Origin: Bacilli bacterium
Lineage (GTDB): Bacteria; Bacillota_I; Bacilli_A; RF39; UBA660
Assembly: GCA_017416535.1 (NCBI GenBank)
Contig: JAFQCG010000001.1
Span: 203,013-267,012, forward strand
Length of the DNA: 64,000 bases
Reading direction: 5' to 3'
This document shows, piece after piece, positions 7,485-39,749 of this stretch (its first letter is position 1; every line of letters begins with the position of its first letter). Made by a program: the position numbers and the translations under genes. The notes under the pieces are model-generated. The model saw nothing but the letters and a program-made list of their open reading frames with translations, was not told where the DNA came from and did not search any database.

Positions 7485-8180
7485 ATGGCTAATGGAAAAT
7501 CTTTGAATGATGATTATAATGACAAAGCTATTTCTTTAGATGATTGGATTAAATCTTATCGTGATGAAGAAGAAATGCGTGAAATTTTTCTTAATATGGA
7601 TAGAGCTATGAAGTATATACATGATCACGGATATTGCGTTAAGTCATTTGATCCTCGTAATATTATGATTTTGAATAATTCTATTAATCAAATAAAGTTG
7701 GATATTGTTGCTTTACCAGATGATTATGCTGAAAGAAAACAATATATTAAAGAAGATATATATAATTCATCTTTTATTCAAATTGGATTGTATTCTAAAT
7801 GTCTTCCTTTTTTGAAGAGAGATTTTTTAAAAAGTAATTTTGATAGATTTAGTGAATTTTTACCAGAGGGAGACGTTCCATATTATAGGGGAGTAATAGA
7901 TAGAGGAGCTTCTGTTTATTTTTGCGAGTATGCTATGGAAAAAGTAAATCGTGATTTAGCAGCATTAGAAAATGAACTTGCTGGAGAATCTGGTGTTAAA
8001 GTTAAACCAAAGAGTGTATTTGATGATACTGGTATAAATGATAAAATAAATGATTCAATTTACAAACAATTAACTAGTAGGAGGGATGCAGCTTTTGTAA
8101 CTTTCTTGTTATTTCCAACTGCGTTGTTAGTACTTGGTACAGTTATTGCTTTAATTTCATTAATTATTAGCTTTGGATAA
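7485..8180 (+). CDS. Small membrane-anchored protein with a pseudokinase-like C-lobe motif
   Basis: I do not recognise a named family. Residues 40-75 read like the end of the alpha-E helix plus catalytic loop of protein kinases: YIHDHGYCVKSFDPRNIMI aligns with the pattern LH-x-GIVHRDLKPENILL. A Ser stands where the catalytic Asp should be, while the conserved Asn is kept. No glycine-rich loop or VAIK lysine is visible, because only about 45 residues precede the motif. A hydrophobic stretch at about 203-229 ends the protein, predicting a C-terminal membrane anchor. The 231-residue gene fills the sigH-secE gap and has its own GGGAGG site and a probable promoter (TTGTCT/TAAAAT, 7435-7463). EssB/YukC of type VII secretion is also a membrane-bound pseudokinase, but homology is unproven. 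Confidence 0.5.
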   Translation: MANGKSLNDDYNDKAISLDDWIKSYRDEEEMREIFLNMDRAMKYIHDHGYCVKSFDPRNIMILNNSINQIKLDIVALPDDYAERKQYIKEDIYNSSFIQIGLYSKCLPFLKRDFLKSNFDRFSEFLPEGDVPYYRGVIDRGASVYFCEYAMEKVNRDLAALENELAGESGVKVKPKSVFDDTGINDKINDSIYKQLTSRRDAAFVTFLLFPTALLVLGTVIALISLIISFG

Positions 8181-30753: not shown

Positions 30754-30782
30754 TTGCAATATTGTATGAAAAATAAGATAAT
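30754..30782 (+). promoter_or_regulatory. Promoter of the WXG100 gene cluster
   Basis: TTGCAA (30754-30759), 17 bp, GATAAT (30777-30782). It is the only clear promoter before the six rightward small genes. Confidence 0.65.
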
Positions 30783-30833
30783 TGTAGTGTAAGGTATTAG
30801 AGTAGAGGGGTGTCTTACTTTAAGGAGGTCAAT

Positions 30834-31187
30834 ATGAATAATAACAACGATGTATTTGCCTTGAATGAAGCAGTAATTGATAATTATATGCTAGATATTA
30901 TTGAATGTAGCAATAAAGTTAAAGCTATATTTAATAAAATAGATGATTTAGTTGAAAAACTAAAAAGCAATTACGTTTGTGAGAGTGCAACAACATTATT
31001 TAAACAATATGAAGATTTCAATGATAATTATTCAATTGTTGTAAATAATATTCTTAGTTATAATACAGATTTGATGTCTTTAAAGAAAAAATATGTTTCT
31101 GCTTTAAACGACCTAACACAGAAAATGAAATCAGAAGCTGTGCGTTTGCAAGCTGATAAAACTGATGGATATAAGGAAGAGAGGTAG
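30834..31187 (+). CDS. Small helical protein, first gene of the type VII secretion cluster
   Basis: A 117-residue acidic protein from ATG 30834, which has AAGGAGG before it; an earlier in-frame ATG at 30810 does not. Predicted almost wholly helical with heptad-like spacing (for example CSNKVKAIFNKIDDLVEKL and YNTDLMSLKKKYVSALNDL) and no signal peptide or membrane segment. No WXG motif is present. Size, helicity and place directly before a WXG100 gene suggest an ESX-family or partner protein, but I know no named family for it. Seven bases separate it from the next gene, so they are co-translated. Confidence 0.5.
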   Translation: MNNNNDVFALNEAVIDNYMLDIIECSNKVKAIFNKIDDLVEKLKSNYVCESATTLFKQYEDFNDNYSIVVNNILSYNTDLMSLKKKYVSALNDLTQKMKSEAVRLQADKTDGYKEER

Positions 31188-31193
31188 AAAATT

Positions 31194-31496
31194 ATGGATT
31201 TTCAAAGCGCAGATCATGGTGTAAGTATCACTGGTATGAACCAATATATCGATGATATTAACACTGTAGTTTTAACTGAAGTTGCTGCTGCATTAAGAGA
31301 CACTGGTGCTGTTGAAGATGCAGTAAGAGCTGGATGGCATGGTAATGCTCCAGAACAATTTATTGCTAACTTAAATAAGGCAAAAGAACAAATGGTTGAA
31401 ACTTTAAAACAATTACAAAACACATTCGAAACAGAGCTAAATGGTATCAAATCTTCAATTTTAGATATGGATGCTAATTTAGTTGATGAAGAGTAG
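31194..31496 (+). CDS. WXG100 family type VII secretion protein
   Basis: A 100-residue helical hairpin protein with the WXG motif in the turn: the central stretch RAGWHGNAPEQF (residues about 48-59) is flanked by two amphipathic helices. No signal peptide, as expected for ESAT-6-like proteins exported by EssC. The C-terminus ends in an acidic stretch. It is the clearest EsxA/YukE-type protein here and so is a likely substrate or structural secretion partner. Start after GTAGAAAATT, weak ribosome binding site; coupling to the gene seven bases upstream is likely. Confidence 0.88.
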   Translation: MDFQSADHGVSITGMNQYIDDINTVVLTEVAAALRDTGAVEDAVRAGWHGNAPEQFIANLNKAKEQMVETLKQLQNTFETELNGIKSSILDMDANLVDEE

Positions 31497-31507
31497 GAGG
31501 TAAGACA

Positions 31508-31993
31508 ATGGGTGCAATAGGACAATGGGTTAAAAATCAAGCTTCTAGAGCTTGGGATAGCGTTCAAAATATCGGAGATAAGTTCTCTACTGCAATCGGT
31601 AAAGTTCAAGGTTATGTAGGTACTGCATTTGAAGTTGCTAAGAATGGTTCAACATTCGTTGGTTTACAATATTCTTCAATCGGTACAATCCGTTCTGCTA
31701 TTAGAAACTATGTTACAGGAGTACAAAAAGTACTTGCTGACTTAAATACAAAAGCTTCTAATAAAAATGCTTTAAAAGGTGAAGTTGCTTCTGCAGCTGA
31801 TGCTTATGTTAAAGCTGTTTCAGACGTAGCACAAGCTTATGTTTCTGCATTATTAGCATACAGTGATAGAATGTATGAATATGGTGAAGAATATAAGAAA
31901 GCTGATACTAACCTTGCTTCTACAGTTAGTGAAGAAGCTTCAGCTTTATCTAGTTCTGCTGAAACATATCAAGAAAAATATAACCAACAATAG
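31508..31993 (+). CDS. Helical ESX-like protein, 161 residues
   Basis: I do not recognise a named family. The N-terminal ~60 residues (MGAIGQWVKNQASRAWDSVQ, then GKVQGYVGTAFEVAK) are amphipathic and Gly/Ala-rich. The remainder is a long helical pair: ALKGEVASAADAYVKAVSDV resembles the helix-turn around the WXG position of ESX-like and LXG-associated proteins (a G-x-x-A pattern without Trp). No signal peptide. Strong GGAGG site. The 11-base spacing on both sides places it in the same transcript. It may be a substrate or chaperone-like partner. Confidence 0.5.
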   Translation: MGAIGQWVKNQASRAWDSVQNIGDKFSTAIGKVQGYVGTAFEVAKNGSTFVGLQYSSIGTIRSAIRNYVTGVQKVLADLNTKASNKNALKGEVASAADAYVKAVSDVAQAYVSALLAYSDRMYEYGEEYKKADTNLASTVSEEASALSSSAETYQEKYNQQ

Positions 31994-32004
31994 AGAACTA
32001 ATAT

Positions 32005-32313
32005 ATGAGTAGTCTATACGAGTTATATAACAAAAGAACAAAATATAAGGCTTTACGAGAGAACGTTACTAATGCTATTAACGTTCTTTCTCGTAATATA
32101 ATTAATGATGGACTTTCTAATGCTAGTTATTCATTAAGTAATAATTATACTGTTAATGAAGTGGCATGTAAGAACGATGTTATTAGTAAGGCAAAAGATA
32201 ATTTGGCGTCTGATTTAAGTAACTTGAATGCTTGCTTATCTTCAATTAATTCTAAAATTTATAGTTTAAATAAAGAAATTGAAGAAGCAGAAGCAGCCGA
32301 GGGTGCAGTTTAG
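32005..32313 (+). CDS. Small coiled-coil protein, YwqH/DUF5082-like
   Basis: A 102-residue, almost all-helical protein with N-terminal LYELYNKRTKYKALRENVTN and C-terminal LSSINSKIYSLNKEIEEAEA. The layout recalls YwqH (DUF5082), a small protein encoded upstream of LXG-type type VII substrates in Bacillus, where such proteins act as targeting partners. The resemblance is in size, position and pattern rather than in an identifiable signature. The start lacks a strong ribosome binding site and lies 11 bases after the previous stop. Confidence 0.4.
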   Translation: MSSLYELYNKRTKYKALRENVTNAINVLSRNIINDGLSNASYSLSNNYTVNEVACKNDVISKAKDNLASDLSNLNACLSSINSKIYSLNKEIEEAEAAEGAV

Positions 32314-32324
32314 TAGGTGATAGT

Positions 32325-32609
32325 ATGGCGGAAATTAAAGCAAACGGTGACGAACTAATTAATTGTGGTGAAAGTATGATTGCTTTATGCGATGACTATT
32401 TAACACAAATTAATAATTTGTTTGATTCATTATCAAAGTTAAATAAAACTGGTTGGTCTGGTAGAGCAGCTGATGGTTATGTTTCTAAGTTAGTTATGGA
32501 TCGTAAGAGATTCACTGAATTTGGTGATTATCTAAAAATGTACGGAAAAGTAATTAAAAATACTGGTGATAATGTTAATCGAATCATTGCAAAGTGGGAT
32601 GATAAATAA
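32325..32609 (+). CDS. WXG100 family protein (second copy)
   Basis: A 94-residue helical hairpin with the turn sequence KTGWSGRAADGYVSKL (residues about 45-60), a canonical WXG. Sequence around the turn differs clearly from the WXG100 protein at 31194-31496, so this is not a recent duplicate. The two could form a heterodimer or separate homodimers. Start after AGGTGATAG. Its stop codon overlaps or abuts the next start at 32609 (TAATGG), showing translational coupling. Confidence 0.85.
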   Translation: MAEIKANGDELINCGESMIALCDDYLTQINNLFDSLSKLNKTGWSGRAADGYVSKLVMDRKRFTEFGDYLKMYGKVIKNTGDNVNRIIAKWDDK

Positions 32610-32917
32610 TGGCAAAAGTAAGTTTAGATTATGGTCCAATAAGTAATAATTGTATTACTTCTTTAGATAGTGTTATTGATGCACTAAATGAAGCAATAAA
32701 ATATTTACAACAAAATTCTATTCCAAGTGATTTCTATAAAAGAACTACACTTTCTAATACAATTGCTGATTTAAAATCTCAAAGAGATAATTTAGTTTAT
32801 GTTAAGAATTGGATTGTAAATAGTAATGCTAATTATAATTCAATGATTGATAAATTGAATATTCAAGCCAATAAATTGCCTGTATATCAAGTAAAACGTA
32901 GAACGACTATCGTTTAA
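32609..32917 (+). CDS. Small helical protein, last gene of the rightward cluster
   Basis: 102 residues, predicted helical, no WXG, no signal peptide. Its start overlaps the stop of the WXG100 gene before it by one base, so a tight functional link with that protein is likely. The C-terminus (VYQVKRRTTIV) is basic, unlike the other proteins of the cluster. The family is unknown to me. A hairpin terminator follows. Confidence 0.45.
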   Translation: MAKVSLDYGPISNNCITSLDSVIDALNEAIKYLQQNSIPSDFYKRTTLSNTIADLKSQRDNLVYVKNWIVNSNANYNSMIDKLNIQANKLPVYQVKRRTTIV

Positions 32918-32920
32918 ATT

Positions 32921-32944
32921 AAACACTATATAGTGTTTTTTTTT
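32921..32944 (+). terminator. Terminator of the WXG100 cluster
   Basis: AAACACTA-TA-TAGTGTTT followed by a T-run. Confidence 0.75.
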
Positions 32945-32945
32945 G

Positions 32946-32982
32946 TAAAAAAAAGATAGCTTTTGTTGCTATCTTTTTTATT
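32946..32982. terminator. Bidirectional terminator between the WXG100 cluster and the metallopeptidase
   Basis: The stem 32952-32960/32968-32976 is flanked by an A-run on the left and a T-run on the right, so it can act on both converging transcripts. Confidence 0.8.
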
Positions 32983-34696
32983 TTGTAGTATTTATTTCAG
33001 TTGTTGGTTGAGACTTTGCGTTTATATAGCTTAAAACATCGCTATTACGGCTAAAATTAGCTGTTGTGTATTTTTTCTTTGCTGATGTTAAATAATTGCT
33101 TGTATAAGTGTTATATGCATTAAAATTGCAATTGTCATATACTTTGTCATCTATACTTGCTTGTAAATTATATTCATTATATAAAGTATTTATATTATCA
33201 ACTGTCATTCCATTACTTTCAGCAATGGCATTAAAGAAATTATTTTGAATTTCCCCATGCCATTTTATAAAGTCTTCTGCATGTTTTAGTGAATTTGTTT
33301 TTGTATATTCTAGATGTCCGTATATATCTAATTCCCAGTTTCTAATTAAATAGAATGCTGAGTCTAAATCTTTAACTTTCCCTTCATGAATTGCATCAGC
33401 CAGATTATCATAGAAGTTTTTGCTTAAATATTTTACTGCATCTGTTCTTATATCCATACGTATTGCTGTCTTTTCTGCATCTGTTGGTGTTAATCCTGTT
33501 TTTGCTGTATAGTTTTTCCAAAAATCATCGGGATCGCTTTGTGTTATTTCAACTGAGTACATATATTTTAAGAATTCTTTTTGTGATTCTGTATTTGTTA
33601 GTTCTAAATCTTTATATGCGCTTTCAAGAGTATTATTAAATGCTACATCTTCTAAACCTTGGTTTTCTAAATTTAGGTCATTAAATCTACTTAGATTGTA
33701 TGATCTTACATAAGATATTTTCTTCCCGTATGTTCCTGGTTCTATTTTTAAATAGTCTGACATTCCAAGTTCAGCTGCAGCTTCTAATACCCAACTATTC
33801 CATAGTGAATCTACTGGTACTTTTTCTTCTTTATTTGGTAGATTATACATTCTACATATTCCGGATTCTAATCCATTTTCGTCGTTTATGTCACTTGCAC
33901 TATATTCTAATAAATGCATTATTTCATGTACAATTACTGATTTTAATATTTCATCGGGGTTAGCATTTTCTCCTGTGATTTTTTTTACGTCTGCATACAT
34001 GTCTGTCATTGTTGGATTGTATACAAATGTTAGATTATTTGTAATATATGCATTTGATGCTGAACCTGTTCTTTGAAACATAGTTAATTTTGTTAGTGTA
34101 TTAGCAACTTTTGCAATTTCAATATCGTTGAATTCGTTATTTACTACTTCTGCAATAAGTGTACATATTTTATTCATATCTGATGTTGACATGTCTGAGT
34201 AGAATGTATTTATACTGTCTGTACCTTTAGACATATATTCTTTGTTGTTTTGTTGTACTTTTTGTATTAATTTATTAACATCTAATTTTCCTTGATTATT
34301 TAATAAATCTGATTGTGTACTTTTATTTATTTGTGTTGAATTATATACTGCAAGCGCTTCATCTAATCCGTAATATGGAGCATATTCAAATGAATAATCA
34401 TGGGAATTCAATTGGTTTATAAAATTCATATAATTATAATTATTCATTGTAATTGAATGTGTATTTAAATCTTCATCATAAACACTTAATTCGCTACTCT
34501 TTGTTGAATTGATATAATCTGATGTAATCGATGAATTGTTTGTTGTGTTACTATATGAGGATTGTTTTGATTGACTTGCAAATTGTAATAAACCTCCAGT
34601 ACATGCTGTTGCACTAAAAGCCATTACAAGAGTAAGACCTATTGCTATTCCTGCTTTTTTAAATTTGTTTAGTTTATATTTCTTTTCTGGATCCAT
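32978..34696 (-). CDS. Lipoprotein zinc metallopeptidase linked to the type VII locus
   Basis: A 572-residue protein from ATG 34696 (AAGGAGTG upstream). An N-terminal basic region and hydrophobic stretch end in SATAC near residue 32, a probable lipobox, so it is likely anchored outside the membrane. After a Ser/Asn/Thr-rich linker the only clear motif is VIVHEIMHLLEYSA (about 260-273), the HExxH zinc site. EAAAELG about 50 residues later offers a Glu as a possible third ligand, as in gluzincins. No named family is recognised. It lies between the WXG100 genes and yukD/essC but has its own promoter. A role in processing secreted proteins or cell wall is conjecture. Confidence 0.65.
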   Translation of the reverse strand: MDPEKKYKLNKFKKAGIAIGLTLVMAFSATACTGGLLQFASQSKQSSYSNTTNNSSITSDYINSTKSSELSVYDEDLNTHSITMNNYNYMNFINQLNSHDYSFEYAPYYGLDEALAVYNSTQINKSTQSDLLNNQGKLDVNKLIQKVQQNNKEYMSKGTDSINTFYSDMSTSDMNKICTLIAEVVNNEFNDIEIAKVANTLTKLTMFQRTGSASNAYITNNLTFVYNPTMTDMYADVKKITGENANPDEILKSVIVHEIMHLLEYSASDINDENGLESGICRMYNLPNKEEKVPVDSLWNSWVLEAAAELGMSDYLKIEPGTYGKKISYVRSYNLSRFNDLNLENQGLEDVAFNNTLESAYKDLELTNTESQKEFLKYMYSVEITQSDPDDFWKNYTAKTGLTPTDAEKTAIRMDIRTDAVKYLSKNFYDNLADAIHEGKVKDLDSAFYLIRNWELDIYGHLEYTKTNSLKHAEDFIKWHGEIQNNFFNAIAESNGMTVDNINTLYNEYNLQASIDDKVYDNCNFNAYNTYTSNYLTSAKKKYTTANFSRNSDVLSYINAKSQPTTEINTTK

Positions 34697-34719
34697 ATTA
34701 TACACTCCTTATTATAATA

Positions 34720-34748
34720 ATTTTATCATATTAGTTTTTAAAGGACAA
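34720..34748 (-). promoter_or_regulatory. Promoter of the metallopeptidase gene
   Basis: Reading the minus strand: TTGTCC (34748-34743), 17 bp, TAAAAT (34725-34720) with a TG-extended -10. Confidence 0.65.
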
Positions 34749-34782
34749 TTATTACTACAGTTACATATGTTAAGTTTAGTCA

Positions 34783-34812
34783 AATAAAAAAAGCTATACA
34801 AATAGCTTTTTT
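34783..34812 (-). terminator. Terminator after essC-yukD
   Basis: The stem formed by AAAAAAGCTAT and ATAGCTTTTTT around ACAA can end the minus-strand transcript just at the yukD stop codon. Confidence 0.75.
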
Positions 34813-35065
34813 ATAATAGTATTAAAGTTGTTCCGTTTCTTATATCGGTATTATATAAAAGAGTATTTGGTTCATATTTTTGACTTGTATCTCTATTATA
34901 TAGTGATGTTGTATTACTTCCTTCATAACATCCATCAGAAAATTCTGCAACTGTTTTATTTAGTAATGTGATTATGTTTCCAATTCTTTTGTTAATTGGT
35001 AGGTATACATCAAAGCTTGTTTCAATTGTTGGAACTACTAGTTCAACTAAAACTTTATTTTTCAT
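34811..35065 (-). CDS. YukD/EsaB-like ubiquitin-fold protein of type VII secretion
   Basis: An 84-residue protein beginning KVLVELVVPTIETSFDVYLP. The pattern of a beta strand pair, then the helix RIGNIITLLNKTVAEFS, and a late strand ending NGTTLILL fits the ubiquitin-like YukD/EsaB family, small cytoplasmic parts of Firmicutes type VII systems. The start is ATG 35065 behind AGGAGG and overlaps the end of essC by 11 bases, so the two are translationally coupled. The longer frame from 35086 is inside essC and rejected. Confidence 0.75.
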   Translation of the reverse strand: MKNKVLVELVVPTIETSFDVYLPINKRIGNIITLLNKTVAEFSDGCYEGSNTTSLYNRDTSQKYEPNTLLYNTDIRNGTTLILL

Positions 35066-38000
35066 CTTGATTTTCCTCCTTATCACTTACTACTTTTTTA
35101 ATTGGTATTACAGTTGTTTCATCAAGGATAAATGCCATATCTGGGAAAGATTGATTTCTTATTTCAGGGTCAATATTGTCAACTCTTATTGCTAGTTGAT
35201 TTCCAACATCTTCTCCTAACCAAATTCCTCTATGTTTATTTATTACTTCATCATACCATGTTTCTAATTCTAGTCGTTGATAATCGGATTCATTGTCAGC
35301 AATAATTGCGATTGTATTTTCTGATTCTTTTATTGCTCTAAAGAACTTTTCGTATATTGGATATGTATTTTCATTAATTTTTGATTTTAATTTAGATACT
35401 CCATTGATTACATATACACGTTTGATATCTGTTGTTGTTTTTTCAATTTCTTGAATTAGTGCTGGCAATATAGCATCAAATTTATCTGTATAACATTCAA
35501 CAGGGATCTTAGCATTATCATATGTTTTTGCAACGTCTAGTACTCTTACTTTTGTTTGAGGTATACGTTTTAAAATCTTAAATAATGAGAAGAAGAAGTT
35601 TTCGTGTTCTGATATGTTATTTGCTAGTACAACATTAATTTGATCTTTTGTAAAGTCATATGTTTCGTTGTATTTGCTTTCAACATTTACTCCGATTGGA
35701 ACTTTTGTTAGATCTTTAATGTCTTCTAACAAGTGATCAACTGTAACTACATCTGGTAATACTGGTACACGTGTTGCATGTGTTGTATAGTTCTTTTGTA
35801 GTACTAATACACCTTCACGTATTGTCTGAGTTACCTTGTCAGGTTTAGTAATATATGCTGTTTGGAATTCTAATTTCATATCTCCAATTCCTGTAATACC
35901 ACGACCACGTACTTTGTAAGGAATTAATCCTTTAGCACACATTAATAATGTTCTATAGTCTGTATCATTTGCCATTTGTAAGCATAATTTATTTGAGAAG
36001 TATTCCGCTAATCTTGGTCTGAAACTATTAGCAGCTCCTGTTGTGATTACAAATGATACACCGCATTTTAATGCATCACGATACATTGTTGAAATCATTT
36101 CTGTAAAGTTACCCATTGTTTCTGAGAATATTTCATAGTTGTTGATAATAATTGAAATTAGTGGTAACTTTTCACCGCTTTGTTCAATATAGTTTTTATA
36201 GCTTCCACCATAGTCAACAAATAAATCTTTACGTCTATCTAATTCTTTGTCGATCATGATAAATAAGTTAACTATTTGTTCTTGACTATCTACTGTACAA
36301 ACTTCTCCAATTTGTGGAGCTTTTGAGAAAACTTTTAATGTTTCTGAACCGAAGTCTAAGATATACATATGTAATTCATCTGGACTATGATCTGCTATTG
36401 CTGAATAAATCATTGTTGCAAGTAAGTCTTCTTTACCACTATCATTCATTCCCCAAATTAATGTATTTGCAGATGAAAGATTTAATGTTAATAGCCCTTG
36501 CTTTTGAGCAGCAGGTTGGTCATATTCTCCAATAATTGGATTAATGACATATGGTTCAGGTTGATAATTATATTTTTTCTTTAAGTTTCCTAAGAAAATT
36601 TCAGCAGGAATTTTATCTAACCATAATTTTTGAGCTACATAATTGTCTTCTGCTGCAATTTCTGTGATGTGTTTTACGATGTTTGAAAGTTGATCTCCTT
36701 TTTCTGCAACTTCAACACGTTTTACAATTTCATTAATAGTTTTTGTTACATTTCCTACGTTATCGACAAATTTAATTGAATCGTCAATCTTTTTTATTAC
36801 GGCGTCACTTGGAATATATTTTGCTCCAGCCCAACCTGATTGACCAATATCAAAGTATTCATCAAATCCAACTTGTAGGTAGAAACGTCCAGTTTCTTTA
36901 ATACTTGCTGCATCAGGTTTCTTTAGTACTTCCATACTATCACCACGGTCTGCAACTTTTAAACAAACACGGAATTTTGTGTTTGACCAGATTTGATCAT
37001 TTACTACTCCGGATGGTTTTTGTGTTGCTAGGATTAAGTGAACTCCTAATGAACGTCCAATACGAGCTGTTGAAATTAACTCATCCATGAACTCTGGTTG
37101 TTGAGATTTTAATTCAGCGAACTCGTCACTAACAATTAATAAGTGAGAGATTGGTGTTTCAAGAATACCTTCTCTGTAATATTTTTGATATTTGTAAATG
37201 TCAATTGTACTTTCACCTGTAACACTTTTTGCATCATTAAACATTCTTTGACGTCTTTTTAGTTCAGAATTGATTGATACTAATGTTCTGTTCATTTCAG
37301 CTGTGTCTAGGTTTGTTATTGTTCCTACAACGTGTGGAATTCTTGTTTTTGTTTCATGGTTATCGAAGGCCATTGCTAGACCTCCACCTTTGTAGTCGAT
37401 AAGTACAAATTGTACTTCATCTGGGTGGAAGTTTACTGCCATTGACAATAAACAAGTAACTATAAATTCTGATTTACCAGAACCAGTAGAACCTGCTATA
37501 AGTCCATGTGGTCCATGATATTTTTCATGTAAGTCTAAGTAGAATTGTTCACCACTTTTATGTACTCCGATAGGTACTTGAAGTGATTGGATTGGATTGT
37601 TTGTTTTCCATCTATTTCTTATATTCAATTGTTCAATTCTTGCTACATTATACATTTCTAGGAATGTCATACTTGTTGGTAGAGCAGATTCTTCATCTAC
37701 ATATGAGATTGGTATATTTGCAAGTCTATTAGCGACTGCTCTCATATTTAAACCAGTAACAATTTCTGGTAAGAATCTTTGTTGGTTATTTAGTTCTTTT
37801 TCGATAATACAACTTTCTTTATCTAATACTTCGATGAATGCAGAACATTCATTTGGTAAACTTTGCAATGAATCATCAATAATATTTAATGAAAATCCAA
37901 GATTTGATTTACTATTAATTATTTCGTTGATGATTGGAACATCTTTTATTGCAGTATAATCATTTGTAATTATTAAATAATATGAATCAAAGTTTCTAAA

Positions 38001-39689
38001 ACCAAAGTTCTTTTCAACTTGTCTATCAACTGCTTCTTGCGTTTTTTCGTCTTTATCTTGTTTTCCGTAGAATTCTCTTTGTCTTTTTTGGAATATTCCT
38101 TCTAAATATGTTGATACTTTTTTAATATCTTTCATATTATTTGCATAAAAACGAGTGTTTTTGTCTTCTGAAATACAATGAGGAGCAAACTTTGCATAAG
38201 TAAAATCTGTTTGGTCTTTATCTGTTAACATAAATATTAATTTTAAATCTTGTGAACTATGATATGCCATTAACTGTAAGAATATACCGTTTAAGAAATC
38301 TTGATTATATGATGAATTACATATAAATGCAGATATGTTTTTATCTGAGAATGAGAATGTAATTGGAACATCATTTAATGTATATTTAGTTGCTGATATA
38401 TTTGTAGCTAAATCCATTAAATTATCTTCATCTAATGTAAATCTTTTTTGTGGTGCTGTGATTTTTAACTTAGCTGGACAGTTACCTGTACCAACTTTTA
38501 CTGTTAAGAAATCATCATCACGTATTTCTTTATTCCATAGATTTGTTCTTGTTTTACCAAATACTAAACTGTAACATTCACTAATACTAATGTTATTTCC
38601 TTTTAGTATTTGTGTTTGATTAACAATTTTTACATTTATTTCTTCTTCTTTTTCTTTTATGTATTCAGTGTACTTAGTTTGTCTTTTCTTTTCTTTTTGC
38701 TTTGATTTATTCTTCTGATAACTTGCAGTAATACGTGGCATTAATGCTCCACCAATAAGCATACTTATACACATTACTAATCCAGGGATTGAATCTTTTA
38801 GTCCTCTTTGACCACTAGCAATTCCATAAATTGTTGTATAGGCATTCATTACTGATGATGAAAGCATTGTTATCATTGAACCTAAAGTTAATAAGAATGG
38901 CATTTCTTCTTGTTCTTGTTTTTCTGGTGGTGCATCAATATTAACTTCTTCTTCTACTAAACTTTGTTTTAGTCTTGGAGTATGAAAGAAATAGTCTTTG
39001 TCTGTATATAGTTCAATTGCCATTTCTTCATCACTTACAGGGTCAACTTGAGTATTATCTTGTGTTGTTTGTTCGTTGTAAGTTACTAAATTAAAGTTAT
39101 TTATAAATAATTTATCTTTTGGTTGGTTTATTTGTAAGAATGTTCCCATCCAAATAATTTTTAATCCGTATAAAAATATAACGTCTCCAACTTTGATTTT
39201 TGTTTGTTTAACACGTTTGTCATTTAAATATACAAAGTGAGAGTCATCGTCTGTTGCTGTTATGTAAAAAGATCCATCTTGTGCTGGATTTATTGAAATG
39301 TGATGTGGAAGTACGTGGTTATTTACGTAACTAATACTTGTATCATTTGCTGAACCTACAGTAATAGCTCCATTTTGTACTAGATATCTTGTTGATTTTT
39401 CTTCTACACTTGGAATACAATAAATACCAATATAGTCATTACGACCTTTTATTTGAATTGGTTGGTATTGATATTCTTCTAGTACTGCTACTTCTTGAAT
39501 CATATTTCCACTAACTATATTCACACTACCGTTACTTTTTACAATCCACTTTTCGTCTCTTGCTTCAATACTTACAGTTCTTTTGATTTTAGAACCTACT
39601 GGTAAGTAATCGATGGCATATACTCCAGACACTTTATTCGGAAGATTAAATTTTGTTATTTTTTCTTTGTCTAAAATAAAAACGCGCAA
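35055..39689 (-). CDS. essC: EssC/YukBA-type FtsK/SpoIIIE ATPase, motor of type VII secretion
   Basis: 1544 residues, start TTG at 39689 placed 7-8 bases after AGGAG; the in-frame GTG three codons earlier overlaps that site. Domains: N-terminal FHA-like region (about 95-190, with NHVLPHHISI and VGDVIFLYGLKIIW); two membrane segments (about 265-315); then three FtsK/SpoIIIE-like modules. Module 1 is complete, with Walker A GSTGSGKSE near 736 and VLIDYKGGG near 765. Module 2 has a degenerate P-loop, GMNDSGKED, near 1081, with Glu for Ser/Thr. Module 3 has no recognisable P-loop. In known systems this hexameric ATPase selects WXG100 and LXG substrates. It lies convergent to the WXG100 genes rather than in one operon with them. 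Confidence 0.93.
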   Translation of the reverse strand: MRVFILDKEKITKFNLPNKVSGVYAIDYLPVGSKIKRTVSIEARDEKWIVKSNGSVNIVSGNMIQEVAVLEEYQYQPIQIKGRNDYIGIYCIPSVEEKSTRYLVQNGAITVGSANDTSISYVNNHVLPHHISINPAQDGSFYITATDDDSHFVYLNDKRVKQTKIKVGDVIFLYGLKIIWMGTFLQINQPKDKLFINNFNLVTYNEQTTQDNTQVDPVSDEEMAIELYTDKDYFFHTPRLKQSLVEEEVNIDAPPEKQEQEEMPFLLTLGSMITMLSSSVMNAYTTIYGIASGQRGLKDSIPGLVMCISMLIGGALMPRITASYQKNKSKQKEKKRQTKYTEYIKEKEEEINVKIVNQTQILKGNNISISECYSLVFGKTRTNLWNKEIRDDDFLTVKVGTGNCPAKLKITAPQKRFTLDEDNLMDLATNISATKYTLNDVPITFSFSDKNISAFICNSSYNQDFLNGIFLQLMAYHSSQDLKLIFMLTDKDQTDFTYAKFAPHCISEDKNTRFYANNMKDIKKVSTYLEGIFQKRQREFYGKQDKDEKTQEAVDRQVEKNFGFRNFDSYYLIITNDYTAIKDVPIINEIINSKSNLGFSLNIIDDSLQSLPNECSAFIEVLDKESCIIEKELNNQQRFLPEIVTGLNMRAVANRLANIPISYVDEESALPTSMTFLEMYNVARIEQLNIRNRWKTNNPIQSLQVPIGVHKSGEQFYLDLHEKYHGPHGLIAGSTGSGKSEFIVTCLLSMAVNFHPDEVQFVLIDYKGGGLAMAFDNHETKTRIPHVVGTITNLDTAEMNRTLVSINSELKRRQRMFNDAKSVTGESTIDIYKYQKYYREGILETPISHLLIVSDEFAELKSQQPEFMDELISTARIGRSLGVHLILATQKPSGVVNDQIWSNTKFRVCLKVADRGDSMEVLKKPDAASIKETGRFYLQVGFDEYFDIGQSGWAGAKYIPSDAVIKKIDDSIKFVDNVGNVTKTINEIVKRVEVAEKGDQLSNIVKHITEIAAEDNYVAQKLWLDKIPAEIFLGNLKKKYNYQPEPYVINPIIGEYDQPAAQKQGLLTLNLSSANTLIWGMNDSGKEDLLATMIYSAIADHSPDELHMYILDFGSETLKVFSKAPQIGEVCTVDSQEQIVNLFIMIDKELDRRKDLFVDYGGSYKNYIEQSGEKLPLISIIINNYEIFSETMGNFTEMISTMYRDALKCGVSFVITTGAANSFRPRLAEYFSNKLCLQMANDTDYRTLLMCAKGLIPYKVRGRGITGIGDMKLEFQTAYITKPDKVTQTIREGVLVLQKNYTTHATRVPVLPDVVTVDHLLEDIKDLTKVPIGVNVESKYNETYDFTKDQINVVLANNISEHENFFFSLFKILKRIPQTKVRVLDVAKTYDNAKIPVECYTDKFDAILPALIQEIEKTTTDIKRVYVINGVSKLKSKINENTYPIYEKFFRAIKESENTIAIIADNESDYQRLELETWYDEVINKHRGIWLGEDVGNQLAIRVDNIDPEIRNQSFPDMAFILDETTVIPIKKVVSDKEENQDEK

Positions 39690-39720
39690 AGTAACCACTC
39701 CTATTCTTCTACTATAGAAT

Positions 39721-39749
39721 AGTATAACATATATATTTTGAAAAGTCAG
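39721..39749 (-). promoter_or_regulatory. Promoter of essC
   Basis: Minus strand: CTGACT (39749-39744), 17 bp, TATACT (39726-39721) with an extended TG. Confidence 0.6.

What the first reader, a model, noticed from the sequence alone, without database searches (positions are those of the whole stretch)
30754..39749. Reduced, rearranged type VII secretion locus without EssB, EsaA or EssA
Six small helical proteins (two with a clear WXG) run rightwards and meet a leftward group of EssC-type ATPase, YukD-like protein and an HExxH lipoprotein. The membrane partners EssB/YukC, EsaA/YueB and EssA known from Staphylococcus and Bacillus are not recognisable, and no LXG toxin is present. Either the missing parts are elsewhere, or unfamiliar proteins here do their job. 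Established: WXG100 plus EssC defines type VII-like systems. Inference: this is a different subtype.
Basis: partly seen in the sequence, partly recalled or inferred. Interest (0 to 1): 0.8.

Follow-up and report, generated by a model that had tools for sequence, protein, structure and literature searches.

The report
Nine-gene type VII secretion variant
Uncultured gut Bacilli carry a stripped-down type VII protein-export locus that lacks the usual membrane partners and instead travels with six small proteins and a membrane-anchored metalloprotease-like protein, which looks like an undescribed subtype of a known secretion system.

Summary
The window has an EssC ATPase, a YukD-like protein, an HExxH lipoprotein and six small ORFs, two with WXG. 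Profiles for EssB/YukC, EsaA, EssA and LXG find nothing in the same genome, although they ring in control genomes. YukC passes its cut-off in 0 of 386 family genomes. A second EssC locus in the genome also lacks these partners. The non-WXG small genes are conserved with essC. All nine genes sit together in 16 sampled loci from at least 10 genera, in six different gene orders, and profile comparison matches the small genes position by position. Their EssC proteins fall in one supported clade (one member has different cargo). The lipoprotein keeps H-E-H and a downstream ExxAE in 18 of 18 sequences and was securely found only in this family. This gene set matches none of the subtypes T7SSa to T7SSj described in Garrett et al. 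2024. I judge it a new T7SS subtype: a new variant of a known kind. Proposed mechanism (inferred): EssC with YukD exports the WXG100-like proteins as complexes without EssA/EssB/EsaA, and the lipoprotein acts on the outer face. A pseudokinase-TM protein 23 kb away looked like an EssB substitute, but its distribution does not follow EssC.

The parts
30754..30782 (+). promoter-like TTGCAA-17-GATAAT ahead of s1; weak
   Evidence: 9 of 12 matches; such sites are not more frequent than in shuffled sequence
30834..31187 (+). s1, 117 aa small protein, no WXG
   Evidence: AAGGAGG ahead of ATG; orthologues in all 16 nine-gene loci
31194..31496 (+). s2, 100 aa, WXG100-like (WHG)
   Evidence: PF06013 in 13 of 15 orthologues; EsxA structures found by profile
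31508..31993 (+). s3, 161 aa, longest small protein; next to s2 in every nine-gene arrangement seen
   Evidence: weak TIGR04197 match E 0.0028
32005..32313 (+). s4, 102 aa, no WXG
32325..32609 (+). s5, 94 aa, WXG100-like (WSG)
   Evidence: PF06013 in 9 of 15 orthologues; EsxA structures found by profile
32609..32917 (+). s6, 102 aa, start overlaps the stop of s5
32949..32979 (.). terminator-like palindrome between the two converging gene groups
32978..34705 (-). membrane-anchored (lipoprotein) gluzincin-like protein, 575 aa, HEIMH at 260-264, LEAAAE at 307-312
   Evidence: H260, E261, H264, E308, A311, E312 aligned in 18 of 18 full homologues; family profiles A2/A4
34811..35068 (-). YukD/EsaB-like protein, 85 aa
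   Evidence: PF08817 E 0.0015; next to EssC in most sampled loci
35055..39698 (-). EssC-type ATPase, 1547 aa, FHA region, D1 with intact Walker A and B
   Evidence: TIGR03928 921 bits; motifs; B. subtilis YukB structure E 2.6e-112

Best explanation
[quoted passage not shown] It is defined by a co-inherited set: EssC with FHA region, YukD, six small proteins s1-s6 (s2 and s5 are WXG100-like) and a membrane-anchored gluzincin-like protein, plus a DUF4176 protein in part of the clade. Mechanism, inferred: D1 of EssC powers export; YukD is the cytosolic ubiquitin-like partner; s2/s5 and their non-WXG neighbours pre-assemble as helical-bundle complexes (s2-s3 and s4-s5-s6 are never separated) and are recognised by the fast-evolving C-terminal part of EssC; the metalloprotease-like protein sits on the outer face and trims, releases or makes room for the exported proteins, a role comparable in position to MycP of T7SSa. 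No EssA, EssB or EsaA is used. Shown: gene content, conservation, clade, absence by profile. Inferred: export, complexes, protease role.
For: Nine genes together in 16 loci, six arrangements; 17 of the 18 family genomes with a strong lipoprotein match have it beside module genes. Orthology of s1-s6 by position: window-type against L040/L072 profiles 97, 97, 96, 67, 92 and 91% on the diagonal, every off-diagonal 3.1% or lower; against the L080 group 70-97% for five of six, with off-diagonals up to 12.7%. EssC of nine-gene loci in one starred clade of 18 rows, 16 nine-gene plus L204 (cut by its contig end) and L069 (different cargo). YukC over cut-off in 0 of 386 family genomes but found next to EssC in same-class G059. 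EssA, EsaA and LXG absent from G000-G002. D1 identity about 77-78% to L082 and L110 against 19-34% in the C-terminal 190 residues (its L087 row is the wrong copy), matching published roles: only the D1 Walker motifs are needed for translocation (PMC13355648) and the EssC C-terminus sets specificity (PMC5994694).
Against: No experiment; secretion is not shown. Very diverged membrane partners encoded elsewhere would escape the profiles. L069 has an EssC of this clade with other small proteins and no lipoprotein, and G035 has the lipoprotein on a contig without the module. Fold of the lipoprotein was not obtained (mean pLDDT 60). The small proteins were not folded, so the helical-hairpin shape of s1, s3, s4 and s6 is assumed. 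EssC was not compared with named T7SSc-j references.
Confidence: 0.72

Rival explanations
1. It is an ordinary T7SSb whose EssA, EssB and EsaA are encoded elsewhere and have diverged past recognition; for EssB the candidate is the pseudokinase plus TM protein at window 7485-8180.
For: That protein has a kinase C-lobe fold (model pLDDT 82.8, Z about 11 to kinases) and a C-terminal TM helix, the architecture of EssB's cytoplasmic and membrane parts; all seven genomes of the held set with a type-A EssC carry it.
Against: It lies behind a sigma-factor-like gene, often ahead of secE-nusG, is present in EssC-minus genomes G016, G019 and G056, and is absent from most EssC-plus genomes. No profile hit for YukC, EssA or EsaA in the genome while controls ring. 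No EssB-like gene stands out among the recurrent neighbours of family EssC genes.
Confidence: 0.15
2. EssC plus YukD is a generic engine shared in the family, and s1-s6 plus the lipoprotein are a cargo module rather than a separate secretion subtype.
For: L069 has an EssC of the clade with other cargo; L040, L072 and the L080 group carry small-protein arrays without this lipoprotein.
Against: 16 nine-gene EssC proteins share one clade with only two other rows, so engine and module are inherited together; an apparent swap in L087 was my own selection error and vanished on correction.
Confidence: 0.2
3. A decaying remnant without function.
For: Missing partners and no toxin gene in the locus.
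Against: All nine frames are intact and conserved over 10 genera, with D1 Walker motifs and zinc-site residues kept.
Confidence: 0.03

Closest known systems
T7SSb (EssC/YukB systems of Staphylococcus and Bacillus)
   Same: EssC with FHA region, YukD/EsaB, WXG100 proteins; EssC scores over the model TIGR03928
   Different: no EssA, EssB or EsaA and no LXG toxin found in the genome; six small proteins in conserved neighbourhood; metalloprotease-like lipoprotein
T7SSc-T7SSj (Garrett 2024, PMC11217815)
   Same: EssC, YukD and WXG100 without EssA/EssB/EsaA
   Different: those are described with kinases, phosphatases, DUF6382-FHA, TadZ-like ATPase, Ig-domain protein, EspG-like chaperone or beta-propeller; none is described with this six-gene small-protein set or a metalloprotease-like lipoprotein
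T7SSa / ESX with MycP
   Same: extracytoplasmic membrane-anchored protease linked to the EccC ATPase
   Different: MycP is a mycosin (subtilisin-type serine) protease; here a putative zinc protease; EccB, EccD and EccE were not looked for
LXG-Lap operons with DUF4176 (PMC9600955)
   Same: small helical proteins in a row and, in part of the clade, a DUF4176 gene
   Different: no LXG toxin or immunity gene in the module

Membership tests
type VII secretion system (general) | EccC/EssC ATPase | tested here: met
   TIGR03928 921 bits over cut-off 778
type VII secretion system (general) | WXG100 protein in the locus | tested here: met
   window members are below the Pfam cut-off, but 13 of 15 s2 and 9 of 15 s5 orthologues match WXG100, with invariant W and G
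type VII secretion system (general) | WXG100 proteins are secreted through EssC | not testable with these tools
   needs an experiment
T7SSb | EssB/YukC | tested here: not met
   PF10140: none in G000; 0 of 386 family genomes over cut-off; B. subtilis, G059 and G081 ring
T7SSb | EsaA/YueB | tested here: not met
   TIGR03929: none in G000-G002; B. subtilis rings
T7SSb | EssA | tested here: not met
   PF10661: none in G000-G002; B. subtilis rings
T7SSb | LXG substrates | tested here: not met
   PF04740: none in G000-G002; B. subtilis rings
T7SSb | EsaB/YukD | tested here: met
   PF08817 E 0.0015 for the window protein, below cut-off; a YukD-like gene clusters with EssC in 80 of 87 loci compared
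T7SSc, T7SSg, T7SSh | EssC without N-terminal FHA (PMC11217815) | tested here: not met
   FHA match E 1.6e-4, over cut-off
T7SSd, e, f, j | kinase, phosphatase, DUF6382-FHA, TadZ-like or Ig-domain protein beside EssC | tested here: inconclusive
   none recognised by eye among the neighbours of the nine-gene loci; no profile for these components was run on the locus or the genome
T7SSc-j | EssC inside the named clade | not tested
   no reference sequences at hand
gluzincin metallopeptidase (lipoprotein) | HExxH plus downstream glutamate | tested here: met
   H260, E261, H264 and E308 aligned in 18 of 18; L209 has one extra residue in the motif
gluzincin metallopeptidase (lipoprotein) | fold | tested here: inconclusive
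   model too poor, no match; no Pfam or PDB sequence relative

The most novel reading that the evidence does not exclude
A T7SS subtype in which EssC needs no dedicated membrane scaffold: the only other membrane-attached part is an outer-face metalloprotease-like protein, and the six small proteins are themselves the exported end product (a secreted complex or surface structure) rather than carriers for a toxin.
Probability: 0.35. Interest if true: 0.78.

Novelty: new variant of a known kind. Interest (0 to 1): 0.6.

Why it matters
What EssB, EsaA and EssA contribute to T7SSb is not settled. A lineage that keeps EssC, YukD and WXG100 proteins without them, with a fixed set of other parts, gives a natural reduced system to test which parts are truly needed. 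It also links an extracytoplasmic metalloprotease-like protein to T7SS outside mycobacteria, and suggests that RefSeq-based surveys miss subtypes present in uncultured gut Bacilli.

Tried and rejected
Pseudokinase-TM protein (window 7485-8180) as EssB substitute: fold fits but distribution does not. EssB/YukC chains were not among the rows shown in the structure searches; that says nothing either way. Module swapping between EssC clades in L087: caused by my picking the wrong of two tandem EssC genes; gone. Lipoprotein fold: model poor, no match. The HExxH membrane proteins beside EssC in L040 and L072 were not recovered by the lipoprotein profile, so kinship is unproven. In one search a longer antisense ORF hid s2 of the window and L035, and YukD of L110; these genes are present. 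Promoter-like sites are no more frequent than in shuffles. Two scripts or calls failed for trivial reasons.

Full report
What is there. The window (G000:C4:203013-267012, from a 1.5 Mb assembly about 96% complete) carries six small genes on the + strand, 30834-32917, meeting three genes on the - strand, 32978-39698, at a palindromic terminator-like hairpin. A near-identical locus is in record JAFSGC010000002.1, a goat rectum Bacilli MAG. EssC is unambiguous (TIGR03928 921 bits; YukB structure 9qks E 2.6e-112). D1 keeps Walker A GSTGSGKSEF and Walker B DEFAEL; D2 Walker A ends in SGKE in most of these EssCs, where two EssCs of other families of the class read GKT or GKS.

Missing partners. In the whole genome the profiles for YukC/EssB, the EsaA N-terminus, EssA and LXG give nothing, while each rings in B. 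subtilis. YukC also rings in same-class genomes G059, next to EssC, and G081. Over 386 genomes of the family YukC never passes its cut-off. The genome has a second EssC, 41% identical, with its own YukD and two small proteins; it too has no canonical partner beside it.

Conservation of the small genes. In the two same-genus genomes all nine genes are kept in the same arrangement: EssC 79%, YukD 85-87%, lipoprotein 62-63%, small proteins 48-63% identical. A search of the family with a profile of the lipoprotein gave 18 strong matches among 386 genomes, in 10 genera (the tool's tally of 27 genomes includes weak hits near E 1e-4). I fetched their surroundings. Fifteen have the complete nine-gene set on one contig, G130 has eight with the contig ending at YukD, G121 has EssC-YukD-lipoprotein with the contig ending there, and G035 has the lipoprotein alone. 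With contig L087 (CALVIH010000006.1) this makes 16 complete loci in six gene orders: EssC-YukD-s1..s6-lipo; EssC-YukD-lipo-s1..s6; EssC-YukD-lipo-s2-s3-s1-s4-s5-s6; EssC-YukD-s2-s3-lipo-s1-s4-s5-s6; and two convergent orders, one of them the window's. Through all reshuffling s2-s3 and s4-s5-s6 stay together.

Six more loci (L040, L072, L080, L081, L088, L111) have EssC, YukD and a small-protein array without this lipoprotein. Profile-profile comparison of the array genes, built separately for each group, matches position with position: window-type against L040/L072 gives 97, 97, 96, 67, 92 and 91% on the diagonal and at most 3.1% off it; against the L080 group five of six diagonals reach 70-97% with off-diagonals up to 12.7%. 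For L110 four of six match. So the second refuter fails too.

The proteins. s2 and s5 are WXG100 proteins by profile: 13 of 15 and 9 of 15 orthologues match PF06013, W and G are invariant, and EsxA structures are the best solved relatives. s3 (about 160 aa) has only a weak match to the type VII effector model TIGR04197. s1 has a marginal WXG100 match (E 0.025); s4 and s6 match nothing convincing; that these are helical hairpins is inferred from size, context and weak coiled-coil matches. The lipoprotein has a lipobox or an N-terminal membrane helix, and aligned H260-E261-x-x-H264 with E308-x-x-A-E312 in 18 of 18 homologues (one has an extra residue inside the motif), the pattern of a gluzincin zinc protease; its fold remains unknown. 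A search of 395 genomes across the class gave secure hits only in this family. In part of the clade a tenth gene, DUF4176, follows, a family often found among T7SS genes with unknown function (PMC9600955).

Evolution. In a tree of 76 EssC proteins the 16 nine-gene EssCs lie in one supported group of 18; the other two are L204 (contig ends in the module) and L069, which has different small genes. An earlier tree used the wrong one of two tandem EssC genes of L087; that was corrected. EssC D1 is 77-78% identical between the window and L082 or L110 while the last 190 residues are 19-34%. This fits published work that only the D1 Walker motifs are needed for translocation (PMC13355648) and that the C-terminus of EssC decides which substrates go (PMC5994694).

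A lead that failed. Window 7485-8180 encodes a kinase C-lobe with a C-terminal membrane helix, a layout like that described for EssB and TshM. It follows a sigma-like gene, occurs in genomes without EssC and is missing from most with EssC, so I do not count it as part of the system.

Comparison with the known. T7SS without EssA/EssB/EsaA are known as T7SSc-j (PMC11217815); a search of the held papers for those subtype names since 2024 returned no newer subtype survey. That paper does not mention lipoproteins or metalloproteases as components, and its gene sets differ from this one. EssC here has an FHA region, which excludes the c, g and h definitions; the neighbours that define d, e, f and j were not recognised at the locus, though no profile for them was run. 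Placement against reference EssC sequences of those subtypes could not be done.

Verdict. A T7SS, not T7SSb, and most likely an undescribed subtype. Gene content, co-inheritance and absence by profile are shown; export, complex formation and the protease role are inference.

Noticed in passing
window 7485-8180: 231-aa pseudokinase C-lobe plus C-terminal TM protein behind a sigma-factor-like gene and ahead of secE; 12 of 98 relatives have it; function unknown.
   Followed up: yes
L032 9018-15504 (G000:C4, second EssC locus): Type-A EssC with YukD and two small proteins (83 and 71 aa); upstream lie a 233-aa and a 112-aa gene that read like cell-wall hydrolase and holin genes (by eye; no Pfam match for the first). 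Type-A EssCs of seven loci form one clade.
   Followed up: partly
L087 5265-14596 and L200 2849-17481: Two different EssC systems in tandem on one contig.
   Followed up: partly
L040 14265-15716 and L072 1448-3175: Other HExxH proteins with a membrane segment directly beside EssC in loci that have the small-protein array but not this lipoprotein; kinship unproven.
   Followed up: partly
L080 2940-3488 (also L081, L088, L111): Transglutaminase-like protein (DUF553, E 0.0024) beside EssC where the metalloprotease-like lipoprotein is missing.
   Followed up: no
L125: Contig binned as a Methanobacteriaceae archaeon (RUG12825) carries this Bacilli-type EssC-YukD-lipoprotein; probably a binning error.
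   Followed up: no
L036 (G001:C48): A third EssC in same-genus genome G001 with no counterpart among the EssC matches of G000 or G002.
   Followed up: no
window 35055-39698, EssC D2 (residues 1083-1090): Walker A Thr/Ser replaced by Glu (SGKE) in most family EssCs compared, against GKT/GKS in two EssCs of other families of the class.
   Followed up: no
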